A stretch of DNA of 34,567 nucleotides from NCBI GenBank assembly GCA_017462065.1, contig JAFTRV010000088.1, positions 1 through 34,567 of the forward strand, given 5' to 3'. Position numbers and translations under genes: made by a program. This document shows positions 27,718-34,192 of the stretch, in pieces. The stretch is from Bacteroidaceae bacterium. Its GTDB lineage: Bacteria > Bacteroidota > Bacteroidia > Bacteroidales > Bacteroidaceae. The notes beneath the pieces are model-generated. The model did no database searches and was not told the origin of the DNA. It saw only the letters and a program-made list of their open reading frames with translations. The stretch's first letter is position 1, and each line of letters opens with the position of its first letter.

Positions 27718-28422
27718 ATGGAAGCAGCGCTATACCTCATTCCTGTGACATTGGGCGATACTCCTCTCAGCAATGTCCTGCCGCAGTACAACAGCGAGAT
27801 AATATCCGGCATACGCCATTTTATCGTAGAGGACGTGCGTTCGGCGCGCCGTTTCCTGCGTAAGGCCGACCCTCAGTTCGACATTGACGGCTCGCAGTTC
27901 TACGAACTCAACAAGCACACCTCGCCCGCTGATGTCGCCGGCTATCTTAAGCCGTTGCTGTCGGGGCTTCCTATGGGTGTCATATCCGAGGCAGGCTGTC
28001 CTGCCGTAGCCGACCCTGGGGCGGACGTTGTCGCCATAGCTCAACGCAAGGGGCTTAAGGTCGTTCCGCTTGTGGGCCCGTCAAGCATAATACTGTCGGT
28101 AATGGCTTCAGGCTTTAACGGTCAGAGCTTCGCTTTCAACGGCTATTTGCCGATAAAGCCCGATGAAAGGGCGAAAAAACTGCGTCAGCTCGAGCAGCGT
28201 ATATACAACGAGGACCAGACACAGCTCTTCATCGAAACGCCTTACCGCAACGGCAAGATGCTCGAGGATATATTGGGCAACTGTCGTCCGCAGACAAAGC
28301 TCTGCGTTGCCGCCAATCTTACATGTCCTGATGAATATGTGCGTACCATGAGCGTGAAAGAGTGGAAAGGCAAGCTGCCCGACCTCTCAAAGATACCCTG
28401 CATCTTCCTGCTTTTCAAATAA
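27718..28422 (+). CDS. RsmI-family SAM-dependent methyltransferase (tetrapyrrole methylase fold)
   Basis: A 234-residue protein of the family of RsmI, which 2'-O-methylates C1402 of 16S rRNA. Blocks seen are LYLIPVTLGDTPLSNVLP, FIVEDVRSARRFLR, MGVISEAGCPAVADPGADVV, VVPLVGPSSIILSVMASGFNG and QLFIETPYRNGKMLEDI. It is about 50 residues shorter than E. coli RsmI (about 286), which has a C-terminal extension missing here. Bacteroidota often encode both a full RsmI and this short form, so I do not give the rsmI symbol. It starts 4 nt after the GT2 stop and ends 12 nt from the convergent uvrB; the only feature in that gap is a tiny CGGC-ACA-GCCG stem. Confidence 0.85.
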   Translation: MEAALYLIPVTLGDTPLSNVLPQYNSEIISGIRHFIVEDVRSARRFLRKADPQFDIDGSQFYELNKHTSPADVAGYLKPLLSGLPMGVISEAGCPAVADPGADVVAIAQRKGLKVVPLVGPSSIILSVMASGFNGQSFAFNGYLPIKPDERAKKLRQLEQRIYNEDQTQLFIETPYRNGKMLEDILGNCRPQTKLCVAANLTCPDEYVRTMSVKEWKGKLPDLSKIPCIFLLFK

Positions 28423-28434
28423 GCGGCACAGCCG

Positions 28435-29160
28435 TCACTCCTTGCCTTTTAGCAGTTCCTGCAGCTTGAACATCTCGTCACGGTATTGCGCCGCCTCTAC
28501 GAACTCCATCTTCTCGGCAGCTGCCTGCATCAGCTGTCTTGTGCGTTCAATGCTCTTCTTGAGCTGTTCGGCCGTCATGTACTCGACAATCGGGTCGCAT
28601 GCGACAAGCGTCGTTCTCTCGTCGCTGTAAATCTTCGCATCCCTCTTATTCTCCTTATCTTTGCGTTCAAGCACAAGGGCGTTGCTTATCTCTTTCTTAA
28701 TCTGCGTAGGCGTGATGCCGTTCTCGCTGTTGTATCGCATCTGTTTCTCGCGGCGGCGGCTCGTCTCCTCCATTGTACGCCTCATGCTGTCGGTAATCTT
28801 GTCGGCATAGAATATCACAAGGCCGTTCACGTTTCGTGCCGCACGTCCTGCGGTCTGCGTGAGCGAGCGGCGGTCACGCAGGAATCCCTCATTGTCGGCG
28901 TTTAGTATGGCCACCAGCGACACTTCGGGCAGGTCCAGTCCCTCGCGCAGCAGGTTTACTCCTATGAGAACATCGTATACGCCTTCACGGAGGTCGGTCA
29001 TGATCTCGATTCTCTCAAGGGTGTCCACGTCGCTGTGTATGTAGTTGCATCTTACTCCGTGCTTTCTCAGGTATTCGGTAAGCTCCTCTGCCATGCGTTT
29101 CGTGAACGTGCTTACAAGCACGCGCTCCTCACGCTCCACTCGCAGCTGTATCTCCTCCAT
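28435..29160 (-). CDS. UvrB C-terminal fragment (as it would be called by ORF finders)
   Basis: This 241-residue frame starts at an internal ATG ([18 protein letters not shown]) and holds the helicase C-terminal domain: [20 protein letters not shown], motif [15 protein letters not shown], and the UVR coiled-coil [18 protein letters not shown]. The ATG is 24 codons after the TAG, and no promoter or ribosome site is seen before it, so independent translation is doubtful. Confidence 0.6.
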
Positions 29161-29232
29161 GAGGTCATCGACCTGGTTCGCCAGCGGGCGTACCTCTATT
29201 ACCGGGTCGAGCAGTCCTGTGGGGCGTATGAC

Positions 29233-30459
29233 CTACTCTACGACAACGCCCTCGCTCTTTTCAAGCTCGTAGTCGGCGGGAGTGGCGCTCACGTATATCG
29301 TCTGCGGGGTGAGCTCCTCGAACTCCCCGAACATCAGCGGACGGTTGTCGAACGCTGCCGGCAGGCGGAATCCGAACTCCACAAGGTTCTTCTTCCTTGC
29401 ACGGTCGCCGCCGTACATGGCGTGTATCTGCGGGACGCTCACGTGGCTCTCGTCGATTATAAGCAAAAAATCTTTCGGGAAGAAGTCGAGCAGGCAGTAG
29501 GGGCGTGTGCCTGCGGCCCTGCCGTCGAAATAGCGTGAATAGTTCTCTATACCGGAGCAATGGCCGAGCTCGCGCAGCATCTCAATGTCGTATGTGACAC
29601 GTTCGTGCAGCCTTTTCGCCTCTAACGGCTTGCCTATCTCCCTGAAGTATTCCTCTCTGTCGGCAAGGTCCTTCTCAATCTCGGCTATGGCCCTGTCGGT
29701 ACTCTCTTTAGTTGTCATGAAGAGGTTGGCAGGGTATATCTTGTAGTCGTCGAATGTCGTCAGCCTTGCCCCTGTCACGCTGTCAATCTCCTCGATGCTC
29801 TCGATGTCGTCGTCCCAGAACGTTATGCGCAGCACGTGGTCGCTGTATGCGAGGCTTACGTCTACCGTGTCGCCCTTTACTCGGAAATTGCCTCGTTCAA
29901 GGCTTATGTCGTTGCGTGTGTAGAGGCTTCCAACGAGCTTTCGCAGCAACACGTTGCGGTCAATCTTGTCTCCTACGGCAATCTCTATCACGTTGTTGTA
30001 GAAATCGCTGGGGTTGCCCATTCCGTATATGCACGAAACCGACGAAATCACTACTACGTCCTTTCTGCCCGAAAGCAGCGCCGACGTGGCAGCGAGCCTT
30101 AATTTGTCGATTTCATCGTTGATTGCAAGGTCCTTTTCTATGTACGTGTCGCTCGAAGGAATGTAGGCTTCGGGTTGGTAATAGTCGTAGTACGACACGT
30201 AGTATTCGACGGCGTTGTTCGGAAAGAACCCTTTGAACTCGTTGTAGAGCTGTGCGGCAAGAGTCTTGTTGTGGCTCAGTATCAGTGTCGGGCGGTTTAT
30301 CTCCTTTATCACGTTCGCCATAGTGAAGGTCTTTCCCGACCCTGTCACGCCAAGAAGAGTCTGTGCGGGAGTGCCGTTCTTGACACCCTCGACAAGCTGC
30401 GCAATAGCCTCGGGCTGGTCGCCCATAGGCTTGTAGTCCGAAACAAGCTCAAATTTCAT
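29233..30459 (-). CDS. UvrB N-terminal fragment ending at the amber codon
   Basis: This 408-residue product has the Q motif (YKPMGDQPEAI), Walker A GVTGSGKT (37-44), the DNA-gripping beta-hairpin region YYDYYQPEAYIPSSDTYIEKD, and motif II DESH (LLIIDESHVSVP). It keeps the ATP-binding half but lacks the second RecA-like domain needed for ATP hydrolysis and the UVR motif. Confidence 0.65.
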   Translation of the reverse strand: MKFELVSDYKPMGDQPEAIAQLVEGVKNGTPAQTLLGVTGSGKTFTMANVIKEINRPTLILSHNKTLAAQLYNEFKGFFPNNAVEYYVSYYDYYQPEAYIPSSDTYIEKDLAINDEIDKLRLAATSALLSGRKDVVVISSVSCIYGMGNPSDFYNNVIEIAVGDKIDRNVLLRKLVGSLYTRNDISLERGNFRVKGDTVDVSLAYSDHVLRITFWDDDIESIEEIDSVTGARLTTFDDYKIYPANLFMTTKESTDRAIAEIEKDLADREEYFREIGKPLEAKRLHERVTYDIEMLRELGHCSGIENYSRYFDGRAAGTRPYCLLDFFPKDFLLIIDESHVSVPQIHAMYGGDRARKKNLVEFGFRLPAAFDNRPLMFGEFEELTPQTIYVSATPADYELEKSEGVVVE

Positions 30460-31278: not shown

Positions 31279-31330
31279 TGCTAAACTGTAACTTATGGCG
31301 GTCCGGTTGCCGTCAGTTGAAATCAATCTT

Positions 31331-34192
31331 ATGAAAAAACTGCTTTATTTGTTCGCAGCATTGGTGTTGCCATTTGCCGCTCTTGCTGAGAATCCGCCTT
31401 TGATGGGCTGGAGCTCATGGAATACCTATGGTTTCCAGATAAACGACTCGGTCATAAAAGCCCAGGCCGACTTTATGGTGAAATTAGGCTTCAAGGATTG
31501 CGGCTACGACCATATCAACATCGACGACGGCTTCTTCGGCGGTCGTGACGCCGAGGGTCGTCTGCTCATTCACCCGGAGCGTTTCCCTAACGGCCTTCGT
31601 CCTCTGGTCGATTATATACACTCGCAAGGGCTCAAGGCGGGTATATATTCCGATGCAGGCCGCAATACATGCGCCTCTTATTGGGGGGAGCCAAAGGATG
31701 AGATAGGTATCGGCGTAGGTCTCTACGGTCACGATGCCGACGATCTTGGCTTCTATTTCAATGACCTCGGCTTTGATTTCATAAAGGTCGATTACTGCGG
31801 TGCCGATGCGAATAATAATGCCGATAAGCTTGACCTTGACGTGGAGCAACGCTACAAGGAGATTGCTGCCGCAATAAAGGCTACGGGCCGTACCGACGCT
31901 ACATGGAATATATGCCGTTGGGCGTTCCCCGGAACATGGGCGTGCGGGATTGCCGACTCTTGGCGTACCACTGAGGATATCTATCTCGATTGGGAGTCTA
32001 TAAAGAGCATTATCAATCAGAGCCTTTATCTTTCGGCGTATACCGGCTACGGGCACTACAACGACATGGACATGCTCGAGGTAGGCCGCGGGCTTACCGC
32101 CGAGGAGGACAAGACGCACTTCGGCATGTGGTGCATAATGAGCTCGCCGCTGCTTGTCGGCTGCGACCTCAATGATATAAAGGGTGATGCTTTGGCCCTT
32201 TTGCAGAACAAGGAACTCATCGCATTGAACCAGAACGCTCTTGGCTTGCAGGCATATGTCGCAGACGCTGTGAACGGTTGCTATGTTCTTGTGAAAGACG
32301 TGGATGAAAAGTACGGAAACAAACGTGCTGTGGCAGTGTATAACCCAACGAACAGCACAGTGACTGTCAATGTGGATTTCGGCAAGCTCGACCTTGCCGG
32401 CGACGTTCAGGTGCGTGACCTCTTCGAGAAGAGCGATATTGGTACAAGGAACGGCTCTATGAGCGTGACGGTCCCGGCTCACGGCACAAGAATCTATAAG
32501 CTTACGGCTGACGAGCGTGTTGAGCGTACCGTGTACGAGGCCGAAACGGCATGGCTTACGGAATATCAGGAACTGAAAAATCACGAGGCCCTCGGCGTGG
32601 GCAGTTATATTGCCGATGCGGCTTGCTCGGGCGGCATGAAGGTCGGTTGGGTGGGCGGCAAGGCCGGCAACGACGTTCAGTGGCGTAACGTATACAGCAA
32701 GAACGGCGGCGAGTACACCTTGCGTCTCTACTTCATAACCGGAGAGGACAGAACGGTGAAGATGTCAGTCAATGGTGGCGAGCCCATAGTGAAAAGCCTC
32801 AATGGCGGTAGTTGGAGCAGTGTGGCTTCGGCCGACTTTGTGGTGAGCTTGCAAAAAGGCGAGAATGTCGTACGCCTGTATTCCGACGAGGGCTATATGC
32901 CCGACATCGACAAGATGGAGCTTGTGAATGAGAAGCCTCTTTATATATACACTACGAACGGCAGCGTCGATGGTCCCGGAAATACGGCTTTGCCTAAACG
33001 TGTATCCGCATACGAGGATTTGGACGTTGTTCTCAGGGCGGCTCCGGGTCATGAGATCTCTAAGCTTGTCGTACGCCACGGAGCTAATCTGGGCGGCGAG
33101 CAGTTCGTCGATAATGTTCAGCAGTGGAGCGAAGAGACCATAGCTGTCACATCGAATAATGTAAGGATTGGGGGCAAGTACATCGACGGCGACGTCGCTC
33201 TGTACGCCGACTTCGTACCTCAAGAGGGCAGCGAATGGGAACTCGTCTTCAGCGATGAATTCAATGCGGCCGACAACAGCCAGCCTGTCGATGAAAGGTG
33301 GATGCGTTGCCAGCGTTACGGCTCTACATGGAACCGTTGGCTCAGCGATAGCAAGGAGGTTGTCTATCTGCAGGGCGGCGACCTTGTGACCCGTGCTGTC
33401 CCTAACCCTGACCAAGCGAAAGACCCTGTTCCTATGATAACGGGCGGTATAAAGAGCTATAATCGTTTCGGCTTTACGTACGGATATGTCGAGGCGCGCA
33501 TTCTCAGCAACCCCTGGACGGGACATTTCCCTGCGTTCTGGATGATGCCCGAGGACCAGAGCGCGGGCTGGCCAAGCTGCGGAGAGATTGACATCTGGGA
33601 GGCTATCGACACAAAGGCCGATACCTATCATACAGTTCACAGTCACTGGACATACGATTTGAAGAATACAAGCAATCCTAAATCAAGCTTTACATCGTCT
33701 GTCCCGTACGACCGTTATCACACTTACGGCCTTATGTGGGACGAGACGTCGCTTACATGGTATGTCGATGGCAAAGAGGTGGGCAGCTACAAGAAATCGA
33801 AAAACCAGTCCTATCTCGACAAGGGCCAATGGCCTTTTGACAAGCATTTCCATCTTATCCTCAATCAGAGTGTCGGCAACGGCTCTTGGGCGCAGGATGC
33901 CGACGTGACGCATACCTACGAGACTCGTTTCGACTGGGTTCGTGTTTATCAGAAAAAGGGCATGGAGAATACAGACGGCGTGCTTGGCGTGGTTGATGCG
34001 GTTGCCGGCAATGCAGTCGATGTTGAGGCTGTGGAGGGCGGCGTTGCTGTAGCTGTTCCTGCTCCGGCTGTTGTCGATGTGTACGACTTGCAGGGCCGCA
34101 AGGTCGCATCGTGCGAAGTTCAGGGCAGGCATCTGTTCGTACTTCAGCAAGGCATGTATATTGTAGCGGGCAATAAGGTTATAGTAAAGTGA
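31331..34192 (+). CDS. Secreted GH27 alpha-galactosidase / GH16 endo-glycanase fusion
   Basis: A 953-residue two-enzyme polypeptide. Signal peptide 1-19 (MKKLLYLFAALVLPFAALA) fixes the start at 31331 rather than the upstream ATG at 31295. GH27 (about 22-395) begins NPPLMGWSSWNTYGF, with nucleophile D154 in FIKVDYCG and probable acid/base D216 in SWRTTEDIY; it should remove alpha-galactose. Next is a CBM35/CBM6-like module (about 399-530), then a beta-rich linker (535-634). GH16 (about 635-872) has GHFPAFWMMP and the catalytic GEIDIWEAID with E752, D754 and E757, the E-x-D-x-x-E form seen in laminarinases, agarases and relatives. The last 60 residues (VVDVYDLQGRKVASCEV) resemble a type IX sorting tail. 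The combination suggests an alpha-galactose-decorated beta-glycan substrate, not identifiable from sequence. Confidence 0.92.
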   Translation: MKKLLYLFAALVLPFAALAENPPLMGWSSWNTYGFQINDSVIKAQADFMVKLGFKDCGYDHINIDDGFFGGRDAEGRLLIHPERFPNGLRPLVDYIHSQGLKAGIYSDAGRNTCASYWGEPKDEIGIGVGLYGHDADDLGFYFNDLGFDFIKVDYCGADANNNADKLDLDVEQRYKEIAAAIKATGRTDATWNICRWAFPGTWACGIADSWRTTEDIYLDWESIKSIINQSLYLSAYTGYGHYNDMDMLEVGRGLTAEEDKTHFGMWCIMSSPLLVGCDLNDIKGDALALLQNKELIALNQNALGLQAYVADAVNGCYVLVKDVDEKYGNKRAVAVYNPTNSTVTVNVDFGKLDLAGDVQVRDLFEKSDIGTRNGSMSVTVPAHGTRIYKLTADERVERTVYEAETAWLTEYQELKNHEALGVGSYIADAACSGGMKVGWVGGKAGNDVQWRNVYSKNGGEYTLRLYFITGEDRTVKMSVNGGEPIVKSLNGGSWSSVASADFVVSLQKGENVVRLYSDEGYMPDIDKMELVNEKPLYIYTTNGSVDGPGNTALPKRVSAYEDLDVVLRAAPGHEISKLVVRHGANLGGEQFVDNVQQWSEETIAVTSNNVRIGGKYIDGDVALYADFVPQEGSEWELVFSDEFNAADNSQPVDERWMRCQRYGSTWNRWLSDSKEVVYLQGGDLVTRAVPNPDQAKDPVPMITGGIKSYNRFGFTYGYVEARILSNPWTGHFPAFWMMPEDQSAGWPSCGEIDIWEAIDTKADTYHTVHSHWTYDLKNTSNPKSSFTSSVPYDRYHTYGLMWDETSLTWYVDGKEVGSYKKSKNQSYLDKGQWPFDKHFHLILNQSVGNGSWAQDADVTHTYETRFDWVRVYQKKGMENTDGVLGVVDAVAGNAVDVEAVEGGVAVAVPAPAVVDVYDLQGRKVASCEVQGRHLFVLQQGMYIVAGNKVIVK

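What the first reader, a model, noticed from the sequence alone, without database searches (positions are those of the whole stretch)
29233..29235. Single in-frame amber codon at a conserved Gln in an otherwise intact uvrB
The sequence shows one continuous 675-codon frame interrupted only by TAG at codon 409, with typical UvrB sequence on both sides ([18 protein letters not shown]). E. coli UvrB, from memory, has Gln at this place, so CAG to TAG is a one-base change. No other decay is visible. Loss of UvrB would disable nucleotide excision repair in a free-living cell, so either the lesion is very recent, it is an assembly or sequencing variant, or the codon is read through.
Basis: partly seen in the sequence, partly recalled or inferred. 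Interest (0 to 1): 0.75.

Follow-up and report, generated by a model that had tools for sequence, protein, structure and literature searches.

The report
Lone amber stop in uvrB
A gut bacterium's draft genome shows one stop codon inside an otherwise normal DNA-repair gene, and a second of the same kind in a gene the cell should not live without, so either the draft carries single-letter errors or the cell sometimes reads this stop as glutamine.

Summary
On the minus strand, 28435-30459 is a 675-codon uvrB frame whose only internal stop is TAG at codon 409 (+ strand 29233-29235). All 98 other distinct UvrB genes aligned have Gln there. The window is contig C48 of a 2.08 Mb, 108-contig, 84% complete Bacteroidaceae-like draft genome with one uvrB; its uvrA, uvrC and RF1 genes are open. 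uvrB shows no clear decay.

New: a census of 70% of this genome found one other clear mid-gene stop. It too is TAG where relatives have Gln, in metG (methionyl-tRNA synthetase; essential, recalled), the only full copy held. So 'recent loss of UvrB' is no longer the most economical reading. Most likely the assembled letter in both genes is a consensus error or minority haplotype. The bold alternative is Gln-inserting amber suppression: two of two stops replacing Gln CAG is expected under it, and has a 0.4-18% chance otherwise. Against it: none of 30 tRNAs has a CUA anticodon (five isotypes are missing from the draft), TAG is not depleted as a terminator, RF1 is intact. Reads at the two sites would decide.

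The parts
28435..30459 (-). uvrB frame, 675 codons with the terminal stop, one internal TAG
   Evidence: read through, 996.2 bits to TIGR00631 (cut-off 750.1)
29233..29235 (-). in-frame TAG, codon 409
   Evidence: Gln in 98 of 98 other distinct relatives
29236..30459 (-). upstream part, 408 codons: first helicase lobe and UvrB_inter domain
28438..29232 (-). downstream part, 265 codons: Helicase_C, UvrB motif, UVR motif
28435..29160 (-). 241-aa open frame from the first ATG after the stop (codon 434); a possible but unproven re-initiation product
   Evidence: mechanical only
27718..28422 (+). convergent neighbour gene (looks like a SAM-dependent methyltransferase of the RsmI kind; name recalled, no family search run), used to test synteny

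Best explanation
The TAG is a single-letter state of this draft assembly and not a settled feature of the species: a consensus error, or one strain haplotype that the assembler chose. Dominant living cells most likely have a Gln codon here and make normal UvrB. Shown: the TAG is in the sequence, relatives have Gln, the gene is otherwise conserved, and the same kind of TAG sits in the only full metG held. Inferred: that the letter does not represent the working gene.
For: The genome is a fragmented draft: 108 contigs, 84.27% complete. uvrB has no other lesion, and its after/before branch-length ratio is 7th of 29 tips. The same genome carries a TAG in metG, one full copy held, expected to be essential (recalled), also without decay: 2 unique changes besides the stop against 1-8 in ten relatives. 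A true stop there without suppression should be lethal. In the homology comparison of 129 places I recognised no frameshift in a conserved gene of G000 (one 'FS?' row was set aside by eye as a shadow frame), which fits substitution errors better than gene decay. Two stops in 1.45 Mb would need only some tens to about a hundred wrong letters (own estimate).
Against: No reads were seen, so error is inferred and not shown. Both stops are CAG-to-TAG type changes at Gln codons: 0.4% by chance if all one-base changes are equally likely, 3% with transitions four times as likely, 18% if only GC-to-AT transitions occur. G000 has the most unique amino-acid changes in uvrB among 11 near relatives, 5 before and 8 after the stop, and T450S at a column otherwise invariant in 98, a weak sign of a real relaxed gene.
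Confidence: 0.45

Rival explanations
1. A real, very recent nonsense mutation truncates UvrB at residue 408, removing the second helicase lobe and the UVR motif, so that nucleotide excision repair fails in this strain. The metG TAG is then a separate error or variant.
For: One isolated stop, no other lesion; only copy; the unique-change count is the highest of 11; UvrB is not needed for growth in laboratory bacteria (recalled).
Against: It leaves the metG TAG unexplained. uvrA (two copies) and uvrC are open. None of 98 other distinct relatives has a stop.
Confidence: 0.25
2. UAG is partly read as Gln in this strain, by a suppressor tRNA not in the assembly or by strong near-cognate reading by tRNA-Gln(CUG), so both UvrB and MetG are made at full length while UAG still ends other genes.
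For: Two of two clear mid-gene stops are TAG at conserved Gln sites, one in a presumably essential gene, expected under Gln insertion and 0.4-18% otherwise. Neither gene shows clear decay. tRNA-Gln(CUG), near-cognate to UAG, is present; a passage of PMC5289835 states that tRNA-Gln misreads UAG in E. coli. The draft lacks Ala, Ile, Phe, Trp and Tyr tRNAs, so a suppressor tRNA could be missing too.
Against: None of 30 tRNAs found has a CUA anticodon. A tRNA-Gln(YUA) pattern matches 0 of 301 family genomes, its YUG control 257 of 301. TAG ends 67 of 694 long frames here and 19 of 167 in relatives, so it is not depleted. RF1 is open. The metG TAG is followed by U, a context tied to low read-through in yeast. 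No marked structure follows either stop. Only two sites were found in 70% of the genome.
Confidence: 0.2
3. UvrB is made in two pieces, by termination at 408 and re-initiation at ATG codon 434, and the halves work together.
For: The stop falls between the two helicase lobes; a 411-residue UvrB chain aligned to query 10-412 has a solved structure, 7egt (listing only).
Against: Re-initiation at codon 434 would drop the conserved [10 protein letters not shown] stretch; none of 98 other distinct relatives is split; it does not explain metG.
Confidence: 0.04

Closest known systems
UvrB of Bacteroidaceae (TIGR00631)
   Same: Length, domains and sequence; up to 91% identity to genus members
   Different: TAG instead of Gln at codon 409
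Single-base nonsense errors or strain variants in short-read draft genomes (kind recalled)
   Same: isolated substitution stops in conserved genes of a fragmented draft
   Different: both stops found are TAG at Gln codons, which random error would not favour this strongly
Gln-inserting amber suppression such as supE in E. coli (recalled)
   Same: TAG standing at Gln positions of genes without clear decay, one of them presumably essential
   Different: no CUA tRNA found in an incomplete assembly
TAG reassigned to Gln, as in some crAss-like phages of Bacteroidales (recalled; PMC7886860 seen as a search listing only)
   Same: TAG where Gln is expected
   Different: TAG still ends about a tenth of long frames and RF1 is open

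Membership tests
UvrB (TIGR00631) | whole-profile match over the family cut-off, when read through | tested here: met
   996.2 bits against 750.1
UvrB (TIGR00631) | uninterrupted open frame | tested here: not met
   TAG at codon 409
Amber suppression by a CUA tRNA | tRNA gene with anticodon CUA | tested here: inconclusive
   0 of 30 tRNA genes, but the draft is 84% complete and lacks five isotypes; tRNA-Gln(YUA) pattern 0 of 301 genomes with control 257 of 301
Amber suppression by a CUA tRNA | several conserved genes with TAG at the codon of one amino acid | tested here: inconclusive
   two genes, both at Gln, in 70% of the genome
Amber suppression by a CUA tRNA | full-length protein in the cell | not testable with these tools
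   needs proteomics
Full reassignment of TAG to Gln | TAG no longer used as terminator | tested here: not met
   67 of 694 long frames end in TAG, relatives 19 of 167
Full reassignment of TAG to Gln | release factor RF1 lost or altered | tested here: not met
   prfA open, 448.5 bits against 423.25; fine changes not examined
Pyrrolysine coding | pylS gene | tested here: not met
   one match of 22.6 bits, far below the cut-off of 178.15; assembly incomplete
Decaying pseudogene | further stops or frameshifts, relaxed constraint | tested here: not met
   no other lesion; after/before branch ratio 7th of 29; contrary weak sign: unique changes highest of 11

The most novel reading that the evidence does not exclude
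A wild gut Bacteroidaceae strain lives with natural glutamine-inserting amber suppression, so that TAG has drifted into conserved Gln codons of uvrB and even of its only methionyl-tRNA synthetase, while TAG still ends genes: an early stage on the way to stop-codon reassignment.
Probability: 0.18. Interest if true: 0.65.

Novelty: new member of a known kind. Interest (0 to 1): 0.3.

Why it matters
Taken alone it is an ordinary isolated nonsense letter. The pair uvrB plus metG makes a sharp and cheap test. If reads confirm TAG at both sites, a naturally amber-suppressing gut bacterium becomes the leading reading, which would bear on how stop codons get reassigned and on hosts of recoding phages. 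If not, it is a measured example of how single-letter slips in draft genomes imitate the loss of a DNA-repair gene.

Tried and rejected
Second uvrB copy that would make the stop harmless: one copy in the assembly held. Whole-pathway loss: uvrA twice and uvrC once, all open. Loss of uvrB elsewhere in the genus: 38 of 41 genomes have a main uvrB row. G022 (92% complete) has none, but its contig C69 ends 133 bases beyond the neighbour gene on the uvrB side, so a gap is likely; G006 and G035 are 63% and 61% complete. A stop in G021 metG: its copy is cut by the contig end. Programmed read-through structure: folds after the stops are not unusual (z 0.66 and -1.38). Pyrrolysine.

Census filters (repeated; 292 candidate stops in 1,454,361 bases): 220 were dropped because another frame scored better; 52 were set aside because a start codon lies within 12 codons after the stop; 20 remained. 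Of the 20, family searches on both sides were run for four (uvrB, metG, L225, L232); the other 16 I judged by eye to be gene ends or non-coding frames. The start rule could hide real interruptions that happen to have a Met, Val or Leu codon near, so I listed the 52: 48 have an ATG there, and by eye all look like the next gene or like short frames. The thresholds were changed between runs; metG was found, dropped out at the setting, and returned from then on. Interruptions nearer than 30 codons to a gene end would be missed. The homology comparison flagged 10 rows in G000: two each are uvrB and metG; the other six I set aside as shadow frames or mismatched ends, by inspection only. The six rows flagged in relatives were set aside the same way. 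Stretches of G015:C28 and G013:C35 were chosen because metG hits had named those contigs, so that comparison leans towards metG.

Papers: PMC13092985, PMC5289835 and PMC6785717 were read as found passages only; all others were seen as search listings with the start of the abstract. None of these four searches listed a paper on this case; none of them named uvrB or metG, so this says little about what is in print.

Full report
What is there. The minus strand of 28435-30459 encodes UvrB over 675 codons, terminal stop included, with one internal TAG at codon 409, + strand 29233-29235. Read through, the product scores 996.2 bits against TIGR00631 (cut-off 750.1); the two parts match profile positions 1-407 and 409-658. 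The stop lies between the part with the ResIII and UvrB_inter domains and the part with Helicase_C, UvrB and UVR. In the solved relative 2d7d the aligned residue is Gln.

Conservation. In 41 whole genomes, 38 have a main uvrB row; in the 37 other than G000 no main row contains a stop, some of them being partial or in two pieces. On 110 aligned rows (own, 29 loci, 80 loci), 99 are distinct by codons 90-673. Of these, 98 of 98 others have Gln at codon 409: 75 CAG, 23 CAA; none of the 98 has a stop in the aligned part.

The genome. The window is contig C48 of G000: 2,077,309 bases, 108 contigs, 84.27% complete, 1.3% contamination, with one uvrB. uvrA is present twice and uvrC once, all open. RF1 is open.

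Decay. dN/dS of G000 against seven relatives (an eighth pair was saturated) is 0.023-0.049 before and 0.061-0.099 after the stop. Among seven relatives themselves it is 0.017-0.048 before and 0.031-0.095 after, one pair saturated. The G000 values lie towards the upper end, and synonymous distances exceed 1 in most pairs, so these are rough. On a 29-tip protein tree the after/before branch ratio of G000 is 1.58 times the overall ratio, 7th of 29, and its branch after the stop is the fourth longest. Against an intact gene: G000 has 13 unique amino-acid changes besides the stop (5 before, 8 after) at columns invariant in ten near relatives, more than any of the ten, which have 0-5, and T450S at a column invariant over the 98 others. 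I read this as no clear decay.

A second amber. A codon-usage census of in-frame stops in 434,567 bases gave five candidates. Three are adjacent genes in one frame; the other two are uvrB and metG. Extended to 1,454,361 bases, 70% of the genome, it left 20 candidates without a near start codon. Of these, uvrB and metG are the only ones for which family matches on both sides were shown; family searches were run for four of the 20, and 16 were judged by eye. L232:17304-17306 (TAA) has no family match on either side and stays open. A further 52 with a near start were looked through by eye. An independent comparison of relatives' proteins with G000, 129 places, gave only uvrB and metG as conserved genes with a mid-gene stop, by inspection of 10 flagged rows.

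metG (G000:C83:1641-3683) has TAG at codon 161 of that span. The two parts match TIGR00398 positions 2-150 and 152-530. In 26 of 26 other aligned rows with a letter there the codon is Gln (18 CAG, 8 CAA; G002 and G032 give two rows each; one more row does not reach the site). The ten relatives, which include four not, also all have Gln. One full-length metG is held in G000; its second match is a 32% stretch of about 95 residues in another gene. metG has 2 unique changes besides the stop, against 1-8 in ten relatives. A control of 374,474 bases from five relatives gave no clear mid-gene stop, but at the G000 rate only about half a case would be expected there, so this shows no excess in G000.

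What this means. metG is expected to be essential (recalled), so two unrelated true null mutations are an uneconomical account. Either the assembled letters do not represent working genes, or UAG is partly read as Gln. Of all one-base routes to a stop in this codon usage (100 stretches, without the window), CAG to TAG takes 6% with equal rates, 17% with transitions four times as likely, and 42% if only GC-to-AT transitions occur; two of two by chance is therefore 0.4% to 18%. If suppression makes such changes near certain, this favours it by about 6 to 250 over random stops, against what I take to be a low prior for natural suppression.

Tests of suppression. Thirty tRNA genes were found. ARAGORN was run on 28 of the 30 loci, the other two overlapping them, and named all thirty genes: none has anticodon CUA, tRNA-Gln with UUG and with CUG are both present, and Ala, Ile, Phe, Trp and Tyr are absent. 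A pattern for tRNA-Gln with a YUA anticodon matched 0 of 301 genomes of the family; the control with YUG matched 257 of 301, twice in G000. TAG ends 67 of 694 long frames in G000 (100 stretches, without the window) and 19 of 167 in five relatives, so it is not depleted. PylS was not found above its cut-off. The bases after the stops are G (uvrB) and T (metG), and no marked structure follows either. Passages of PMC5289835 say that tRNA-Gln misreads UAG in E. coli and that UAG followed by U reads through little in yeast. So weak read-through is possible, but the metG context is not favourable.

Verdict. Observation confirmed. Most likely a consensus error or minority haplotype in a draft genome (0.45); a true recent uvrB null 0.25; amber suppression 0.2 (its bold form 0.18); a two-piece UvrB 0.04. 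Reads at the two sites would settle it.

Noticed in passing
L181:2121-2123 (G000:C83), inside metG L181:1641-3683: A second in-frame TAG at a conserved Gln, in the only full-length methionyl-tRNA synthetase gene held for this genome.
   Followed up: yes
L232:17304-17306 (G000:C65): TAA between two coding-like stretches of 245 and 96 codons without a near start codon and without Pfam matches; interrupted gene or two genes, not resolved.
   Followed up: partly
window 31295-34192: The 965-aa carbohydrate-active-looking protein aligns to a 1409-aa protein in G018 (L309) in two pieces, so the relative has about 460 more residues in the middle.
   Followed up: no
G002:C16:23068-25122, G002:C16:59113-61167 and G002:C13:178899-180953: Three full-length metG genes in one genus member (7% contamination), so extra metG copies may exist in the genus.
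   Followed up: no
G000:C2:15540-18293 and G000:C96:1470-4184: Two full-length, open uvrA genes in this genome.
   Followed up: no
L036:1501-1572 (G000:C96): By eye, tRNA-Gln(CUG) has an A-C mismatch in the anticodon-stem pair next to the loop; not checked in relatives or by folding.
   Followed up: no
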